Positions 31,032 to 55,819 of a DNA stretch of 64,000 nucleotides are shown piece by piece. Position numbers and translations under genes: made by a program. Origin of the DNA: Aquisphaera insulae (GTDB lineage: Bacteria > Planctomycetota > Planctomycetia > Isosphaerales > Isosphaeraceae); NCBI RefSeq assembly GCF_011064615.1, contig NZ_JAALJH010000017.1:1-64000 (forward strand). The letters run 5' to 3'. The notes beneath the pieces were generated by a model. The model had not been told where the DNA came from. It saw only the letters and a list, made by a program, of their open reading frames with translations, and searched no databases. Numbering within the stretch: the stretch's first letter is position 1; the number at the start of each line of letters is the position of its first letter.

Positions 31032-33455
31032 CTAGGCGAGGGCTCGCGCCGCCTCACGCCCGACGGCCCGGCTCGCCGCCATGGTGATGACGGCGTCGAC
31101 GTCGAGGATCAGCGAGACGCGGCCGTCCCCCAGGATGCTGGCACCGGAGAGGCCCGGCACGGATCGGAAGTTCTTCTCCAGGGATTTCAGGACGACCTCC
31201 TGCATGCCGATGAGCCGGTCGACGACCAGGCCGATGGTCGTCTCCCCGTTCTGGACGACGACGACCCGGAGGGACTCCGCCGGCGCGCCATTCCCGCCGC
31301 CCCCGTCCGGCGCCTCGCGCCGCTCCGACGGATGCGAACGGCCGGCCCAGCGGAAGAGGTCCTTGAGGGAGACGATCGCGATGATCCGCTTGCGGACCTC
31401 GATCGTCGGCCGGCCCTGGACGCGGAAGACTCGCGACGGCTTGACCTCGACGATCTCGTCGATGTGGTCCAGCGGCAGGGCGTACACCTCGTCGAAGACC
31501 TGCACGAGCAGGCTGGACATGATGGCCAGCGTGAGCGGCAGGCGGATCGTGAAGACCGTCCCGTGGCCGGGCGTCGAGCGGACGTCCACGGTGCCGCTGA
31601 GGTTCTCGATCCGGTTCTTGACGATGTCCATGCCGACGCCGCGGCCGGAGACATCCGTCACGGTCTCCGCCGTGCTCAGCCCCGGGTGCCAGATGTAGGC
31701 GATCAGCTCGCGGTCGGTGAGCCCCGCGGCCTCGGCCTGCGTGACGAGCCCTCGGGCCACGATCTTCTTGCGGATCCGCTCGCAGTCGATGCCGCGGCCG
31801 TCGTCGCTGACCGTGATCACGACGCTGTTGCCGCGGTGCGTCGCCTGGAGCGTCACCGTGCCGGCCCGCGGCTTGCCGGCGGCCTCGCGGGCCTCCGGCG
31901 GCTCCAGGCCGTGGTCCACCGAGTTCCGGACCATGTGGATGAGCGGGTCGCTCAGCTCGTCGATCATCCGCTTGTCCAGCTCGGTCTTCTCGCCGCCGAT
32001 GACCAGCAGCACCTCCTTGCCCGACGAGTGGCTGAGGTCGCGGATCACCCGGCGGAACCGCTCGAAGAGCGGGCCGATCGGCACCATCCGCGTGTCGAGC
32101 ACCCCCTTCTGCAGGCCGTCGGTCACCCGGCCCAGGCTGTGGATGGCCTCCGTGAGCGCCTTGAGCGTCTCGCGGCCCTGGCGGAGCCTGTCGAGCTCGC
32201 CGTGGATCTCCTTGACGTTGTCCCGGAGCCGGCGGACGTGCCCCGCCCAGCGGTCGAGCGCGCCGTCGCCGGCCCCCGCCGAGCCCAGGCCGTCGAGCCC
32301 GCGCGTGAGGCTCTCCAGCCGGTCCTCCGTGTCGGCCGCCAGCGCCTGGGCGTTCGACCCGCGGAAGAGCTCGTCGAGCCCGCGCGCAATATCCACGAAC
32401 CGCGCCTTGTTGATGACCAGCTCGCCGGCCAGGTTCATCAGGTAGTCCAGCCGGTCGCTCTCCACCCGGATCGTCTCCGCGACCTTCTTCTTGGGCGCCG
32501 GGGCGGCGGGGGACATGCCAGGAGCCGACGCCGCGCCTTCACTCCCTCCCCCCACCGTGGGGGAGGGTTGGGGAGAGGGGGCGACCGCCTCGGCCGCGGG
32601 CACGACTGAACCTGTTGCCGAGGCCGCCTCTTCACCCCCTCCCCCCACCGTGGGGGAGGGTTGGGGAGAGGGGGCGACCGCCTCGGCCGCGGGCAAGCTC
32701 ATCACAGAGGGCAGGGCGGCCCCTGCGTCGATTCGTATCCGCGCCACGCCGTCCACGTCCGCCAGGGACCGCAGCTCATCCGGGCCGCAGTTCGTGGCCA
32801 GCCAGACGGTGAACTCGGTCAGCGACTCGGCCACCTCGAGCTGCTCCGCCGGGGGCCTCGTTCCGGTGATGGTCCCGCGGGTCGCCAGGCGATTCAGGAC
32901 CAGCCGGGCCTTCATGTCGGCCAGCGGCAGGTTCGGCTCGAAGGCGACCGTCACGGCCACGCGTTCCGAGTCGTCGACCAGGCTGACCGTCGGCGCGGGA
33001 GCAGGCTCCGGCGCCTTCGCGGGCTCCTCGGCCTTCGGTGGTGCCGGCACCGGGGCCGGGGCGTGCGTCGGGTCGAGCGCGGCGATGACGAGCGGGACGA
33101 GCATCGCGAGGTCGGCCTTGCCGGCGCCCTCGGCGCGGAGCTCGCGGTGATAGTCGCGGAGCTCGTCCAGGCAGCGGAAGGTCAGGTCGAGGACCGGCCG
33201 GTCCAGGTCCCGCTTCTTGCTCCGGAACTGGTCGAAGAGGCTCTCCAGGTGGTGGGTCAGCTCCTTGACCGAGTCGAACCCCATGACGACCGAGGAGCCC
33301 TTGATGCTGTGGAACATCCGGAAGGCCTCGGCCAGGGCCTTCGCGTCGGCGGGTTCCTGCTCCAGGCGGAGCAGCGCGTCGTTGAGCGCGGCGATGTGCT
33401 CGTCGGTCTCGTCCAGGTAGAAGGGGAGCAGCTCGGCAGGGTTGAACCCCGACAT
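31032..33455 (-). CDS. cheA: Chemotaxis histidine kinase CheA
   Basis: 807 residues. Hpt domain with His49 in FRMFHSIKGSS. A P2-like region (about 165-250) is followed by a Pro-rich linker containing two SPQPSPTVGGG repeats. The dimerisation region and the GHKL ATPase follow: N-box HMVRNSVDHGLEPPE, G1 SDDGRGID, G2 GRGVGMDIVKNRIE, and GHGTVFTIRLPL. The C-terminal CheW-like domain has YALPLDHIDEIVEV. It autophosphorylates and passes phosphate to CheY and CheB. Situated between cheR and cheC on one strand. The linker duplication is unusual (see repeat entry). Confidence 0.96.
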   Translation of the reverse strand: MSGFNPAELLPFYLDETDEHIAALNDALLRLEQEPADAKALAEAFRMFHSIKGSSVVMGFDSVKELTHHLESLFDQFRSKKRDLDRPVLDLTFRCLDELRDYHRELRAEGAGKADLAMLVPLVIAALDPTHAPAPVPAPPKAEEPAKAPEPAPAPTVSLVDDSERVAVTVAFEPNLPLADMKARLVLNRLATRGTITGTRPPAEQLEVAESLTEFTVWLATNCGPDELRSLADVDGVARIRIDAGAALPSVMSLPAAEAVAPSPQPSPTVGGGGEEAASATGSVVPAAEAVAPSPQPSPTVGGGSEGAASAPGMSPAAPAPKKKVAETIRVESDRLDYLMNLAGELVINKARFVDIARGLDELFRGSNAQALAADTEDRLESLTRGLDGLGSAGAGDGALDRWAGHVRRLRDNVKEIHGELDRLRQGRETLKALTEAIHSLGRVTDGLQKGVLDTRMVPIGPLFERFRRVIRDLSHSSGKEVLLVIGGEKTELDKRMIDELSDPLIHMVRNSVDHGLEPPEAREAAGKPRAGTVTLQATHRGNSVVITVSDDGRGIDCERIRKKIVARGLVTQAEAAGLTDRELIAYIWHPGLSTAETVTDVSGRGVGMDIVKNRIENLSGTVDVRSTPGHGTVFTIRLPLTLAIMSSLLVQVFDEVYALPLDHIDEIVEVKPSRVFRVQGRPTIEVRKRIIAIVSLKDLFRWAGRSHPSERREAPDGGGGNGAPAESLRVVVVQNGETTIGLVVDRLIGMQEVVLKSLEKNFRSVPGLSGASILGDGRVSLILDVDAVITMAASRAVGREAARALA
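32538..32695. repeat. Duplicated intergenic-type repeat inserted in the cheA linker
   Basis: Two copies of about 65 bp, 93 bp apart (32538-32602 and 32631-32695), each containing CCCCCCACCGTGGGGG and then GGGTTGGGGAGAGGGGGCG. They encode SPQPSPTVGGG in frame. The same C-run/G-run pattern occurs between genes at about 34365-34415 and, in a related form, inside the FHA-TPR gene near 12710-12745 (FPQPSPAEGG). Confidence 0.85.
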
Positions 33456-42219: not shown

Positions 42220-45200
42220 TTAATCGTCCATTGCGGCCCGAGCGTCCTCGCGGCGGGCGTCCTCCTCATAAGCATCGGCGACACGATGCAGGGCCCTGGC
42301 TGTCCTGGGCCAATCAAGGTCGCATTGCTTCGCCCAGGCTCGGTATTTCGCGGCGAGGTCGCGTTCCTGCTGGCCGCCTTCGTTCAAGGACTTCCGGACG
42401 ATTCCGCGATTGTTGAGAATCCCGATATGGAAACCGTTCACGACTTCGTCCGTATCAATCTCCTCGATCACATCTCTCACGGATAGGCATGGCCAAGCCC
42501 CGTCGGTTTCTGATGGAGCATGCGAGAAGACCTCACCGATCCGCTCATCGCAGACCTTAAGTAGATCCCGCTCGCAGGCCAGTTCGCGGGCACGATGAAT
42601 CCAGTCGATCAACTTCCTCTCGTCGACCGTTCCGTTTTCTGTCTGGCCCGGGATCGCTCGCCAGGCCCGGAGCAGTCGAAAGCCGTTGAGAGCGGCGCCC
42701 AGGACTTGAACGAAGAATTTGGGGTTGTCGCAAAGCTGGCCGAGCAGGGTAACGGGTAAGGCCAGCCGATCGTCTAGAAGGTCCAGGAAGATCCATTCCA
42801 GTTGGGCCAGGCGAAGTTCATCGACGATGAGATCCTCCTGGCCGACCTGCTTCTGAATCGTCTCGAAGATCATGGAGAGGTCATATCGAAGGCCCGCCGG
42901 GTGAAGTGCCTGCGTGGTCTCCGCCGCAACCTGGCGCCAGCATTCCAGGACATCCATCAGCAGGGACGATTCGATCGTCTGCTTCTCATGGATGGCCATC
43001 CTGACAACCTGGATGGCCGCATCGGGCCGCTTGTGGGCCAGGAGCATCCTGACGGCTCTTTCCACGTCCTCAACAGTCTCGCCACCTCGATAGATCTCCA
43101 ACGCGTGGGTCCAGTACCACGCGGACACCTCATCTCCTCTTGCGGCAGCCAGATCCCAGGTTTTTCTTACGAAGGGTAGGACGATTAGCAGGCTTCCGAC
43201 CTGCTCAACGGACCAGGTATCCATTGGAAGGCGTTCGATCCAATCCCATCCCGATTCGCGAGTCCTCGCCCAGATGTACCCACGCGCAAAGAAAACGAGC
43301 TTCTGATCCGTCGAAGAGAGCATGTCGGGCAGAATCTTCGCCTCCGCATCGCCCAGGTTTGCGAGTCGAGCGCCTGATTGGACAAGTGCAGCGCCGACTT
43401 CACCTGGGGCTTCGGCGTACTGGACAAGCCTCAGGATGCCTTCCCAACCTTCACGGGCCGTGATCTCCTGCAGAGCGGCTCGTCGGCCGGAATCGACGGT
43501 ATCCTCCTGACCCTGGGAGTCGAAGGTGACATCCCATCGCGGCCTGAACAGTCTTATGTGCTTCTGAACCGGATCTCCTCCATCAAGATTGGCACGGATC
43601 CGTTCGAGGCTCGAAATGGTCTCTGCTTGCAGGGCCCAACCCGAGGTGGAGAATCTCCGATTCCAGTCGATTCTCTCTCCGAGTGCCCTGGAGAGGGCCT
43701 GTCGGTCCTCCTCAATGAAATCGCTGGCGGTCAGGCCGTCCAGCTTGCTGATGAAGGCGGAGAGTGCCGGCTCCGGCAGATTCTCCATTTGCTCGATCAG
43801 GCTCACCCAGTGAGCCACGTCGTTTCCGGTCTGCTCGACCAGGAGACCGGCGCAGGCGCGAACCTGTTGCCAGTATTCCGCGGCGGTAACCCCCTTGGAC
43901 CAGCCGAGTGACCAGTCACGCCAGAGGGGCTGGGATGTCGGCTTCGCTACGTGCTGCTGATTGGGAAGAAGGCTTATGAGAAGTCGCCACCCTGCCTTGG
44001 GCCGGCGTTCGATGAGCTTCTTCAAGACCCTGACCCGTTCCTCGGCGTTGGTCATGGTCTGAGGGAACCACGGCATGAAGATCTGGATCAGGCTGTCGGC
44101 CGGGGTGTTGCCGAACGTTCCTGCGGAGACTTTCTCGTCGAGAGCCGCAAGGATCAGGCTGACCCTGGCTAGGGACGAGCGATCCCATGCAAGTCTCTCA
44201 AGGGCCCAGAGCAGACCAGTATGAGGATTGGAGCTGAAGTAGCTCTTGTCCTGCTGTCGGAACATCTCGACGAGGACGGGCGATTCCCGCTTCAGGTCCT
44301 TCTCGGCCGCATCCAGGAAGGCACCCGGCGATGCTTCCGCCAGAAACGGAAGCAAGGCGGAGAGAGAGGCCCAGCGGCGCCATCCCTCGCTGTGGAGTAA
44401 ATCCCTAACGATCGAATCCGCCAGGCCATGAGCATTCACGGATTCAGATATGTCGTCGGATGCTCTCGCCCCGAGGATGGCGAGCGTTTCGGCGAGGCCC
44501 TCGCGAAGCGTTGAGGAGTGCCTCAGGCGCTTGTTCCGGACGGCCGCCAGCCATCGCTCGTCCGGGGGAAGCTCAAACGCGGGATCGTCCTCGGCGAGCA
44601 CTTCGAGGCTGATCTTTCGGATCCAATCCAGATGGTCTTGCTGGACGAAACGGCCCAGCAGGAACCAGGAATCATCCCGAGAGATGAGACGCCGAGAATC
44701 GCCGCGATGTGAGAGCAAAGGGTCGGGGCCCTGTGACCACTTCAGGGCGGCGTCGGCGATCTCGCGGTACGGGAGTTCCGAGAGCCGTTCGAGGATCCTT
44801 CGGTCCGCCTCCGAGCCGGCGTCCCAGCTTCCTGCCAGCAGGAAGGGGATCAGCTTCGGGGCGTCCGGCGGGTCGCTCCATGGCGGGCGAGCGCGGCTCG
44901 GCACGCGGGCCAGGAGGCGTTTGAGCACGGTCAGGCTTCCGCCCGACTCTCGGCCATACTTCTGAGCCCTTACTTCGTCGAGCCCAGACGAGATGAGCGA
45001 CTTCTCGAGCTCATACCGAGAGACGCGGGGCAAGGATAGGAACTCGCTCGCTCGCTGCTTTGAATCGGCGGCGAGAATAACGCGATGCCCGCGCCGCTCG
45101 GCCTCGGCGACCAACTCCGGCTCGATCGTTAGGGACGGGGCGGGGACGAGAAGGAGTTCCCGCTGGGTGAGTGTGGCCAACGACCGCCAGGCATTCCGGT

Positions 45201-46323
45201 CTTCCACGATCAGAGTCCGCGCCCCGAGCAAGTCGGCCCGCGACGGCTTCTGAGCATAGGCCGCCACGAAGTCAATCACCTCGGACGGTGCCCGGGTCTC
45301 GATCACCAGCGATTTCGTCGAGGATGATGACCAGTTTTTCGCGCTCGGAGGTTCCGGCTCAGAGGATCGACCCGAGCCATAAAACCACGCGTCGAGCCCT
45401 TCGACTTGCTCCTTCCTGGACGTAAGGAAGACCTCGGGCTTCAAGCTCGGAGAAGTCATTGTTTGAAGGTTGGCCCAGTAGTCGTCAAGCGTGGTCACGC
45501 CATCAGGCTTCATCCCAAACAGCGAGGCGAGCCAAGCGTCCACGGCCGGAGCCCGTTCAAGCCACTCTTCAAGATTGGAGGAGTCATAAACACGAACGTC
45601 CTTCCACAAGCCTAGCGCGATCTTGGCCCTGCACCATGAGTCCTTGGCTTGCCACTTGCGCGGCGTGACGAAGACGAAGGTAGTTTGTTTGAGATCAAGG
45701 CCCAGTGGATTCTCTGATCGCTTGGCGAAATCGTCCTCAGCCTTACTCCGCGTGCTTTCCTCGGCGCTCAACTCCCAGACGCTCACCTCCTCCGGCACAT
45801 GAACGTCCGTTTCGCCAGCCTTGACGACTCCATCCCAGTCCGGTCGGTGGACCTGTTCGCCGGAGGGAAATCCGATCCACCGAAGATCGCCCGCTGTCGC
45901 CCAGATCAGGCGACGGATGAGTTCCGGCAGCTTGAACTTTCCTTGCGTGGTCTCTGCCCAGGACTCCAGATTGAGCGCCCGCACCCATCCCATCCTCCTC
46001 CCTCCAAGTTGGATCTCCTGGAAGATCTGAGGCAACTTCCCGGCCACCCGGCGGTTCCCGCGAACCTCATTCGGAATCCGCCCCGTCTCCGCCGCCGCCA
46101 TGGCGAAGAACGCATCACGACCGGCAGGATCGGCATCGAGCTTGAGAGCCTTCACATACGATTCCAGGATCTCGCGCGACTGGGGCGGCGGCATGAGTCC
46201 ACGCTCTAACCGGCTCAGATTCCCCGGGTTAAAGCCGTTGCGGTGGCAGAACTCGCGCAGGGAAAGGCCCATCGCCTTCCGCCGCGATCGAAAGAACTCA
46301 CCGAAGCTGCCGCCTGATGCCAT
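42220..46323 (-). CDS. Giant HTH / PD-(D/E)XK-like / helical-repeat protein, candidate defence effector
   Basis: 1367 residues in one intact frame. Residues about 6-62 form an XRE HTH (SLREFCHRNGFNPGNLSRLE). Residues about 95-265 look like a restriction-endonuclease-fold domain: LPELIRRLIWATAGDLRWIG, RPDWDG (Asp164), VHVPEEVSVWELS (Glu184), a basic KAEDDFAKR, TTFVFVTPRKWQAKDSW and VRVYDSSNLEEWL. Residues about 300-480 resemble the ATPase part of STAND-like proteins but have no Walker A. The rest (to 1367) is helical and unrecognised. Nucleic-acid targeting is an inference. It is divergent from the AbiE pair across a 198-bp AT-rich gap with palindromes. The GC content looks lower than that of its neighbours. 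Confidence 0.7.
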   Translation of the reverse strand: MASGGSFGEFFRSRRKAMGLSLREFCHRNGFNPGNLSRLERGLMPPPQSREILESYVKALKLDADPAGRDAFFAMAAAETGRIPNEVRGNRRVAGKLPQIFQEIQLGGRRMGWVRALNLESWAETTQGKFKLPELIRRLIWATAGDLRWIGFPSGEQVHRPDWDGVVKAGETDVHVPEEVSVWELSAEESTRSKAEDDFAKRSENPLGLDLKQTTFVFVTPRKWQAKDSWCRAKIALGLWKDVRVYDSSNLEEWLERAPAVDAWLASLFGMKPDGVTTLDDYWANLQTMTSPSLKPEVFLTSRKEQVEGLDAWFYGSGRSSEPEPPSAKNWSSSSTKSLVIETRAPSEVIDFVAAYAQKPSRADLLGARTLIVEDRNAWRSLATLTQRELLLVPAPSLTIEPELVAEAERRGHRVILAADSKQRASEFLSLPRVSRYELEKSLISSGLDEVRAQKYGRESGGSLTVLKRLLARVPSRARPPWSDPPDAPKLIPFLLAGSWDAGSEADRRILERLSELPYREIADAALKWSQGPDPLLSHRGDSRRLISRDDSWFLLGRFVQQDHLDWIRKISLEVLAEDDPAFELPPDERWLAAVRNKRLRHSSTLREGLAETLAILGARASDDISESVNAHGLADSIVRDLLHSEGWRRWASLSALLPFLAEASPGAFLDAAEKDLKRESPVLVEMFRQQDKSYFSSNPHTGLLWALERLAWDRSSLARVSLILAALDEKVSAGTFGNTPADSLIQIFMPWFPQTMTNAEERVRVLKKLIERRPKAGWRLLISLLPNQQHVAKPTSQPLWRDWSLGWSKGVTAAEYWQQVRACAGLLVEQTGNDVAHWVSLIEQMENLPEPALSAFISKLDGLTASDFIEEDRQALSRALGERIDWNRRFSTSGWALQAETISSLERIRANLDGGDPVQKHIRLFRPRWDVTFDSQGQEDTVDSGRRAALQEITAREGWEGILRLVQYAEAPGEVGAALVQSGARLANLGDAEAKILPDMLSSTDQKLVFFARGYIWARTRESGWDWIERLPMDTWSVEQVGSLLIVLPFVRKTWDLAAARGDEVSAWYWTHALEIYRGGETVEDVERAVRMLLAHKRPDAAIQVVRMAIHEKQTIESSLLMDVLECWRQVAAETTQALHPAGLRYDLSMIFETIQKQVGQEDLIVDELRLAQLEWIFLDLLDDRLALPVTLLGQLCDNPKFFVQVLGAALNGFRLLRAWRAIPGQTENGTVDERKLIDWIHRARELACERDLLKVCDERIGEVFSHAPSETDGAWPCLSVRDVIEEIDTDEVVNGFHIGILNNRGIVRKSLNEGGQQERDLAAKYRAWAKQCDLDWPRTARALHRVADAYEEDARREDARAAMDD

Positions 46324-46521: not shown

Positions 46522-47319
46522 ATGCCCGTCGTCATGGGTCCCCTGGAACTTCAGCTCCTGGCCTATGCCCAGAGCCAGGGAAGTCCGACCGTCAAGGCCG
46601 GCGAGTTCGTCAGCGCCCTAAACTGGACACCCATACAGGAACGGCAGGTCCTGAGCCGGCTGGCGGGGAAGGGGATCCTGGTGCGGGTCCGGCCGGGGTT
46701 GTACCTCGTGCCCCCTCGACTGCCGCCGGGGGGGCGATGGAGTCCGGGAGAACCCCTGGCGCTGGAGACGCTGATGAAGGATTGCGGCGGTCGCTATCAA
46801 ATCTCCGGGCCGAATGCCTTCCATCGGTACGGCTGGAACGAGCAGGTGCCGAACCGGCTCTACGTGTACAATGACAGGATCTCAGGAGACCGGCGGATCG
46901 GGCCAGTCTCGCTGACGCTGATCAAGGTCACCGCCGACCGATTGGGGAGCATCGAGACCGTCCGCACCCCCGTTGGTATCGTCATGATCTATGCTTCGAA
47001 GGCCCGGGCTTTGGTCGATGCCGTCCAGGATTGGTCGCGGTTCGACACCCTGCCCAGGTCGTTCGACTGGATCACCAGCGAGATCCGGGCCGATGAGACA
47101 TTGCCGGGAAACCTCGTGCGGGCGGCGGCTCAGTTCGGCAACATGGGGACCGTTCGGCGGATCGGGATGCACCTGGAGAGGCTCGAAGTCCAGCGAGCCT
47201 TGCTGCGGCGGTTGGAGTCGAAGCTGCGCCCTTCCTCGAGCCTGATCCCCTGGGATCCGACCCGCCCGAAACGGGGCAAGGTCGACCGCCGATGGGGAGT
47301 GATCTTCAACGATGGCTGA
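46522..47319 (+). CDS. AbiEi-type antitoxin
   Basis: 265 residues. An N-terminal winged-helix region (ERQVLSRLAGKGILVRVRPGLYLVPP) is followed by the AbiEi antitoxin domain: GRYQISGPNAFHRYGWNEQVPNRLYVYND, VRTPVGIVMIYASKARALVDAV, and WDPTRPKRGKVDRRWGVIFND. In type IV AbiE systems this protein represses its operon and counteracts the nucleotidyltransferase toxin without direct contact. The following toxin frame starts inside its last codons (8-bp overlap). The gene appears intact, while the toxin is interrupted. ATG at 46534 is an alternative start. Confidence 0.85.
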   Translation: MPVVMGPLELQLLAYAQSQGSPTVKAGEFVSALNWTPIQERQVLSRLAGKGILVRVRPGLYLVPPRLPPGGRWSPGEPLALETLMKDCGGRYQISGPNAFHRYGWNEQVPNRLYVYNDRISGDRRIGPVSLTLIKVTADRLGSIETVRTPVGIVMIYASKARALVDAVQDWSRFDTLPRSFDWITSEIRADETLPGNLVRAAAQFGNMGTVRRIGMHLERLEVQRALLRRLESKLRPSSSLIPWDPTRPKRGKVDRRWGVIFNDG

Positions 47320-48279
47320 CGAACCGGGCGAACCGGGATTTCACGCCGATCCACAGCGGTTTCGAGAGGCCCTCTCGCGGACCGAGGCGGAGACCGGCTT
47401 CAGCGCCCGGCTCATCGAGAAGGACTACTTCTGCACGCTCATCCTCGGCGACCTGACCCCGATGTTTGACCTGGGGCTCGTGTTCAAGGGCGGCTACCTG
47501 ACGCTCCCAGTAGGCGACGTCTGCTGACCCCGATGTTTGACCTGGGGCTCGTGTTCAAGGGGGGGACATGCCTGAGCAAGGTCCATGCGGTCTTCTTCCG
47601 CCTGAGCGAGGACCTCGACTTCGCCGTTTCCATCTCCCCCGCAGCCAGTCGATCGGAACGGCGGAGGATGGCCGCCCCGTTCAAGGCCCATTTCGCCGCG
47701 ATTTCATCTCGCCTCCCTTGCTTCAGGATGTCCGAGAGGATTGATCCTTGGTTCAGGGATCGCCATTACAAGGGATCGCTCTCCTACGAGTCCGCCGTGA
47801 CGGGCGAAGCCGAATCCATCAAGCTCGAGATCTCGCTCCGCGAGGAGATCATCCGTCCGACTCAGATCCTCGCGGCGAGTACCCTGCTTCTTTCTCCACA
47901 CACCGGCCTGCCAGCGATGAGGCCCGCCAGCGTCCACACCCTCTCCATCGAAGAAGCCTACGCCGAGAAGATTCGGGCGGCGCTCACCCGGCGGGGACCC
48001 GCCATCCGCGATTTCTTCGACGTCGATCATGCCATCCGGTCGTCTCTCCTCAATCCTTCTCATCCGTCGCTGCTGGGCCTCGTGAGGATGAAGCTCGCCG
48101 TGGAAGGGAATGATCCCGTCGACCTCTCGCCATCTCGTCTGGAGAGGCTCCGCGTCCAGGTGGAAGCCCAGCTACGTCCGGTGCTACGCGACCGGGATTA
48201 CCTCGCCTTCGATCTGGATCGAGTAGTCCGGAGCCTGGAGGAACTCGTGGGGGCCCTCGCGGCCGATCATGGCTACTAG
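47312..48279 (+). pseudogene. AbiEii-type nucleotidyltransferase toxin, frameshifted by a 71-bp duplication
   Basis: Two frames make one AbiEii-like protein. The 5' part (71 residues, 47312-47527) runs to LTPMFDLGLVFKGG and then into LTLPVGDVC and a stop. The 3' part (248 residues, from an internal ATG at 47533) repeats MFDLGLVFKGG and continues TCLSKVHAVFFRLSEDLDFAV, the nucleotidyltransferase motifs GG-(T)-x-LS and D-x-D, then IEEAYAEKIRAALTRRGPAIRDFFDV. Removing 47453-47523 restores one ~300-residue protein. The 3' frame keeps the catalytic motifs, so a shorter product from ATG 47533 could retain some activity. Family: type IV toxin, GTP-dependent nucleotidyltransferase. Confidence 0.8.
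47453..47561 (+). repeat. 38-bp direct repeat flanking 33 bp inside the AbiEii gene
   Basis: Copy 1 at 47453-47490 and copy 2 at 47524-47561 are identical (CTGACCCCGATGTTTGACCT at their start). The 33 bp between them (beginning CGGCTACCTGACGCTCCCAG) is not repeated nearby. The extra length is 71 bp, not a multiple of three. Recombination between the copies would restore the reading frame exactly. Confidence 0.9.
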
Positions 48280-55688: not shown

Positions 55689-55800
55689 ATAGGGGCGAGG
55701 GACGAGGGGCGAGGGGCGAGCAGGAACGGACCTCTGGACGGGGATAGGGACGAGGGGCGAGCAGGCACGGACCTCTGGACGGGGATAGGGACGAGGGGCG
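55687..55800. repeat. Left inverted repeat and 41-bp tandem units
   Basis: GAATAGGGGCGAGGGACGAG begins an end that pairs with the right end at 56200-56230 (GAATAGGGGCGAGGGGCGAG when read in reverse complement). Inside it, two 41-bp tandem copies (55711-55751 and 55752-55792) differ by one base and contain GGACCTCTGGACGGGGATAG. The repeat starts within the stop codon of the GGDEF gene. Confidence 0.8.
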
Positions 55801-55819
55801 AGAAAGAAATGGGGGAAAG

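What the first reader, a model, noticed from the sequence alone, without database searches (positions are those of the whole stretch)
47453..47561. Toxin gene of the AbiE pair switched off by a 71-bp direct duplication
Two identical 38-bp copies flank 33 bp inside the nucleotidyltransferase gene and shift the frame just at the GG motif. Deleting one copy plus spacer restores the protein exactly. The antitoxin remains intact. The arrangement could be reversible by slippage, giving on/off switching, or a fixed inactivation. A 248-residue product from ATG 47533 would still carry the catalytic motifs.
Basis: seen in the sequence. Interest (0 to 1): 0.75.

Follow-up and report, generated by a model that had tools for sequence, protein, structure and literature searches.

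The report
AbiE toxin gene broken by insertion
A planctomycete's phage-defence toxin gene (AbiEii) has been cut in two by 71 extra bases: a 33-base piece of unknown origin flanked by two copies of a 38-base stretch, a layout that looks like a CRISPR spacer inserted in the wrong place by the cell's own CRISPR machinery, although this origin is not proven.

Summary
The 38 bp at 47453-47490 recur exactly at 47524-47561, with 33 bp between, inside an AbiEii gene behind an intact AbiEi gene. The net +71 bp shifts the frame at motif I (the GG), ending ORF1 at a TGA. ORF2 (248 aa, ATG 47533, five bases after that stop) keeps all four catalytic motifs but lacks the N-terminal helices. Of 80 related loci, 78 carry one uninterrupted frame; the other two are broken otherwise.

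"71-bp duplication" is not quite right: only 38 bp are duplicated. The 33-bp insert is single-copy in the genome, absent from about 430 relatives, and unrelated to this region of 79 homologous genes.

A 38-bp target duplication around a 33-bp insert (period 71) is close to spacer integration. The same genome has a complete type I-G CRISPR-Cas system with 37-bp repeats and mostly 35-37-bp spacers, and in 2.3 Mb surveyed no other element outside the array has this geometry. Off-target Cas4/1-Cas2 integration is my preferred origin (about 0.5). Against it: the period is at the short edge, there is no leader-repeat resemblance, and no protospacer was found. On/off switching is mechanistically possible but has no evidence.

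The parts
46522..47319 (+). AbiEi antitoxin / autorepressor gene, 265 aa, intact
   Evidence: Pfam AbiEi_4 1.9e-6, PADLOC AbiEi 1.1e-21; same gene upstream of AbiEii in relatives
47312..47527 (+). ORF1: N-terminal AbiEii fragment, 71 aa, through the first FKGG and then 10 foreign residues to TGA 47525-47527
   Evidence: PADLOC AbiEii 4.7e-10; all 12-16 N-terminal residues invariant in relatives kept, but for one in one comparison
47453..47490 (+). first copy of the 38-bp direct repeat (target copy 1)
47491..47523 (+). 33-bp insert, single-copy, unrelated to the gene
47524..47561 (+). second copy of the 38-bp direct repeat (target copy 2)
47533..48279 (+). ORF2: AbiEii from just before motif I to the C-terminus, 248 aa; ATG five bases after the stop of ORF1
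   Evidence: Pfam AbiEii 1e-30; 59 of 69 invariant residues kept against 57 of 69 in intact L005
47560..47619 (+). catalytic motifs I (GG) and II (R...DLD), in ORF2
   Evidence: alignment; motif definitions from PMC3985639
47968..48021 (+). catalytic motifs III (K...R) and IV (RDFFD), in ORF2
   Evidence: alignment; PMC3985639

Best explanation
This is an AbiE type IV toxin-antitoxin operon whose toxin gene was disrupted by a target-duplicating insertion: 33-34 bp of foreign DNA inserted at a staggered cut of 37-38 bp, so that the target now stands on both sides. The geometry is that of CRISPR spacer integration, so the most likely agent is off-target integration by the host's own type I-G Cas4/Cas1-Cas2. 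Shown: the structure, the frame break, absence of the insert in relatives, novelty of the 33 bp, presence of the CRISPR-Cas system. Inferred: the agent and the loss of toxicity. Expected result: a toxin lacking its first two helices (or no toxin) beside an intact autoregulatory antitoxin, revertible in principle by deletion between the repeats.
For: Frame break at motif I with both halves tiling homologues; 78 of 80 related loci uninterrupted and none with the insert. Insert single-copy in the genome, absent from 392 phylum and 45 family genomes, unrelated to the homologous region of 79 genes (mean z -0.04 against 3.4 for the true flank). Host has one Cas1, a Cas4-Cas1 fusion of subtype I-G, with the I-G effector genes and 105 identical 37-bp repeats with mostly 35-37-bp spacers. 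Only element of this geometry outside the array in 2.3 Mb. Off-array integration is documented in vitro and with overexpressed Cas1-Cas2.
Against: Period 71 is at the short edge of the array (2 of 104 units that short). Neither border resembles the leader-repeat junction (best p 0.13) and the border bases differ from the repeat's G...C. No protospacer found. The insert weakly resembles its left flank (p 0.03 to 0.003 depending on scoring). Off-target integration in wild genomes is not well documented. Loss of toxicity is not tested; ORF2 may be translated by reinitiation.
Confidence: 0.5

Rival explanations
1. A replication or repair accident without Cas proteins: a staggered break with long overhangs was filled in and joined over a short captured or untemplated fragment, giving a target duplication with filler. 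The CRISPR-like sizes are coincidence.
For: No resemblance to the leader-repeat junction; period at the short edge of the array; two-copy direct repeats of other sizes exist in the genome.
Against: The other two-copy repeats surveyed are mostly diverged tandem copies, protein repeats or dispersed repeats with an insert homologous to a flank, not a target duplication around unrelated DNA.
Confidence: 0.33
2. A 71-bp tandem duplication, within the gene or by recombination with a diverged AbiEii allele, whose left part has since diverged.
For: The insert aligns weakly to the left flank of copy 1 (p 0.003), and diverged tandem copies occur elsewhere in this genome.
Against: One mismatch in 41 bp on one side against little recognisable identity in 33 bp on the other is not even divergence; and the insert has no similarity to this region in 79 homologues.
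Confidence: 0.08
3. A functional phase-variation switch: the repeats are kept so that the toxin can be turned off and on.
For: Deletion between 35-bp repeats is efficient and RecA-independent on E. coli plasmids (PMC7063769); ORF2 shows no decay.
Against: No relative carries repeats there; the reverse step would need the same 33 bp again; no reads or strains show both states.
Confidence: 0.03
4. Assembly or sequencing error.
For: Draft genome in 309 contigs, contamination estimate 5%; reads not available.
Against: The whole element is 109 bp, shorter than a usual short read (general knowledge), and the 33 bp are found nowhere else in the assembly.
Confidence: 0.06

Closest known systems
AbiE type IV toxin-antitoxin system (AbiEi/AbiEii, DUF1814; S. 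agalactiae AbiE, PMC3985639)
   Same: Gene pair, order, overlap, family matches and the four toxin motifs
   Different: Toxin frame interrupted by 71 bp at motif I
Solved AbiEii-family toxins TglT/Rv1045 (MenT4; 6j7s) and JHP933 (4o8s)
   Same: Best fold matches of the intact relative's model (6j7s E 5e-8, 4o8s E 3e-7)
   Different: Only 16-18% identity; their genes are not interrupted
Off-target (non-canonical) CRISPR spacer integration (Nivala et al. 2018, cited in PMC11788318; in vitro PMC6895254)
   Same: Spacer-sized foreign insert flanked by a repeat-sized target duplication, outside an array, in a cell with Cas1-Cas2
   Different: Seen in an assembled natural genome, not under overexpression or in vitro; subtype I-G; no leader-repeat resemblance; source DNA unknown
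Phase variation by reversible tandem duplication inside a gene (pneumococcal capsule genes; from memory, not looked up)
   Same: Out-of-frame direct repeat in a coding sequence that deletion could remove
   Different: Those are perfect tandem duplications; here the repeats flank foreign DNA, and switching is not shown

Membership tests
AbiE toxin-antitoxin system | AbiEi antitoxin gene directly upstream of an AbiEii gene | tested here: met
   same order in relatives
AbiE toxin-antitoxin system | AbiEii motifs I-IV | tested here: met
   all in ORF2
AbiE toxin-antitoxin system | Uninterrupted toxin reading frame | tested here: not met
   stop at 47525-47527; so it is a disrupted member, not an intact one
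AbiE toxin-antitoxin system | Toxicity neutralised by AbiEi | not testable with these tools
   needs expression in a laboratory strain
Off-target CRISPR spacer integration | Target duplication on both sides of an insert unrelated to the target | tested here: met
Off-target CRISPR spacer integration | Host encodes Cas1-Cas2 with arrays of matching repeat and spacer length | tested here: inconclusive
   type I-G system present; sizes 38+33 (or 37+34, 36+35) against 37 + mostly 35-37: inside the range but at its short edge
Off-target CRISPR spacer integration | Borders resemble the leader-repeat junction, as reported for type II-A in vitro (PMC6895254) | tested here: not met
   best p 0.13; the preference is not known for I-G, so membership is not claimed, only likeness
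Off-target CRISPR spacer integration | Insert matches a phage, plasmid or other protospacer | tested here: inconclusive
   only chance-level matches
Phase-variable gene | Both states present in a population or among strains | not testable with these tools
   no reads; neither genus mate searched carries a clear homologue

The most novel reading that the evidence does not exclude
A natural off-target spacer acquisition by a type I-G CRISPR-Cas system that landed in and broke another defence system's toxin gene: adaptive immunity mutating innate immunity, leaving a one-spacer proto-array inside an operon.
Probability: 0.45. Interest if true: 0.72.

Novelty: new variant of a known kind. Interest (0 to 1): 0.47.

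Why it matters
If the insertion came from Cas1-Cas2, spacer acquisition is also a source of gene-breaking mutations in nature, and such scars can be found in sequenced genomes by their geometry. That would make two open questions directly testable: how often adaptation misfires in the wild, and whether new CRISPR loci arise this way. If not, it is a neat but ordinary case of a toxin-antitoxin pair whose toxin gene was broken.

Tried and rejected
1) Plain 71-bp tandem duplication: rejected because 33 of the 71 bp are unrelated to the gene. 2) Insert copied from elsewhere in the genome: no other match within 3 mismatches for the 33-mer or its central 22 bp. 3) Insert as a functional part of the family: none of 80 related loci has it. 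4) RNA structure across the region: folding is no better than shuffles (z +1.47). 5) Phage origin via the peptide DVAYWERQV read on the other strand, prompted by short matches to phage terminase genes at E around 1: no hit in IMG/VR, so treated as chance. 6) The first genome contigs and viral-contig scans with ORF2 alone found nothing; an alignment was needed.

Full report
WHAT IS THERE. The window lies on contig C79 of a 10.04-Mb draft genome in 309 contigs; several of its named relatives in the searches are planctomycetes. At 46522-47319 is an AbiEi antitoxin gene (Pfam AbiEi_4 1.9e-6, PADLOC AbiEi 1.1e-21). The next gene starts at 47312, overlapping it as in relatives, and is AbiEii, but in two frames. 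ORF1 (47312-47527) matches the N-terminus of AbiEii and ORF2 (47533-48279) the rest (Pfam AbiEii 1e-30). Between them lies the described structure: 38 identical bp at 47453-47490 and 47524-47561 (41 bp with one mismatch), 33 bp apart. The net gain is 71 bp, +2 in frame. The 38-mer occurs nowhere else in the genome within 3 mismatches, so chance is excluded.

THE GENE WITHOUT IT. The closest relatives found in whole-genome searches (one in the same family at 51%, others in the phylum at 43-50% identity) have the pair in the same order and one uninterrupted toxin frame. A profile scan of 84,980 species genomes returned 80 loci. In 78 the N-terminal part, FKGG and the rest are in one frame. The other two are broken differently, and none has this insert. 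ORF1 and ORF2 tile these homologues on either side of the GG; the halves were aligned separately, never joined. The two genus mates searched carry no close homologue, so the age of the event cannot be read from sister strains. ORF2 keeps 59 of 69 residues that are invariant in six relatives, against 57 of 69 for the intact relative L005: no sign of decay.

CONSEQUENCE. The break falls at motif I. Dy et al. (PMC3985639) define motifs I (GG), II (R...DxD), III (K...R) and IV (+DxxD) and showed that mutations in each can abolish toxicity; ORF2 keeps all four. It lacks the first ~50 residues. In a confident model of the intact relative L063 (mean pLDDT 91) these form helices 13-27 and 31-53, directly ahead of the first strand; an E and a D of the EKDY stretch are invariant in 28 relatives. 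The start of ORF2 lies five bases after the stop of ORF1, so termination-reinitiation could yield a truncated protein (inference). I expect loss of toxicity; this is not shown here. The intact relative's fold matches TglT/Rv1045 (6j7s) and JHP933 (4o8s) best.

WHERE THE 71 BP CAME FROM. A tandem duplication would repeat all 71 bp; here only 38 are repeated. The 33-bp insert is single-copy in the genome within 3 mismatches and absent from the other genomes among 392 of the phylum and 45 of the family. It resembles its own left flank weakly (p 0.03 to 0.003, depending on scoring). But it does not resemble the same region in 79 homologous genes (mean z -0.04), whereas the true flank does (mean z 3.4). 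I take the insert as unrelated to the gene. That is the structure left by an integrase with a long staggered cut. The one I know with a cut of about this length is Cas1-Cas2, which duplicates one repeat around each new spacer (established knowledge).

THE HOST'S CRISPR. The genome encodes one Cas1: a Cas4-Cas1 fusion of subtype I-G, followed by a Cas2-like frame, Cas7g, Cas5/6g, Cas3g and Cas8g and an array of 105 identical 37-bp repeats reaching almost to the contig end. Spacers are mostly 35 (30), 36 (46) or 37 (20) bp, four of 38, and single cases of 32, 34, 39 and 45. The inserted structure is 38+33, or 37+34 if one base matches by chance, or 36+35 if two do. A survey of 2.3 Mb of this genome for repeat-spacer-repeat structures found diverged tandem copies, protein repeats and dispersed repeats, but no other high-complexity element of repeat 35-40 and period 69-76 outside the array. 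Spacer integration outside arrays is documented with overexpressed Cas1-Cas2 (Nivala et al. 2018, as cited in PMC11788318; the paper itself is not held) and in vitro (PMC6895254).

DOUBTS. Period 71 is at the short edge (2 of 104 array units are that short). Neither border resembles the leader-repeat junction (best p 0.13). Only the 3' end is suggestive: TTCAAGG against TTGAAGC, the latter also ending the Methanosarcina I-G repeat (PMC10504553), p about 0.01 before correcting for several tests. No protospacer was found in phage, plasmid or IMG/VR collections, which says little for planctomycete phages. I therefore give off-target integration about 0.5 and a repair accident about 0.33.

SWITCHING. 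Deletion between two 38-bp repeats 33 bp apart is plausible: 35-bp and 82-bp repeats recombine efficiently without RecA on E. coli plasmids (PMC7063769). The reverse step would need the same foreign 33 bp again, so this is at most a lesion that can revert, not a two-way switch. No reads or strains were available, and switching stays unsupported.

VERDICT. Observation confirmed; interpretation partly supported: a real, not visibly decayed disruption of the toxin gene, re-described as a 38-bp target duplication around a 33-bp insert, with the host's CRISPR adaptation machinery as leading but unproven suspect.

Noticed in passing
L077 (REEF01000271.1) around 1700-1800 and L135 (JAFGFM010000035.1) around 2500: The only two other broken AbiEii genes among 80 relatives are also broken within a few codons of motif I: a frameshift just after the GG in L077 and a stop codon directly before it in L135. 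The search favours loci intact downstream of the GG, and both are metagenome assemblies, so the clustering may be bias or error.
   Followed up: partly
47559-47565: Motif I of this allele is written with a run of seven G; only 1 of 79 homologous genes has a run of six and most have three or fewer. A second slip-prone spot at the same place.
   Followed up: partly
L144 17365-19203, L145 61-6824, and G000:C255 240025-247691: Complete type I-G CRISPR-Cas system in the same genome with at least 105 identical 37-bp repeats, the array running almost to the contig end; one spacer is 45 bp, well beyond the rest.
   Followed up: yes
32524-32695: A diverged 93-bp tandem duplication carrying a GC-rich palindromic element (CCCTCCCCCCACCGTGGGGGAGGG).
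   Followed up: partly
55705-55802: A 41-bp unit repeated 2.4 times.
   Followed up: no
42220-46323: Divergent 1367-aa gene next to the AbiE pair with an N-terminal HTH_31 domain and no other Pfam or NCBIfam match; possibly another defence gene.
   Followed up: no
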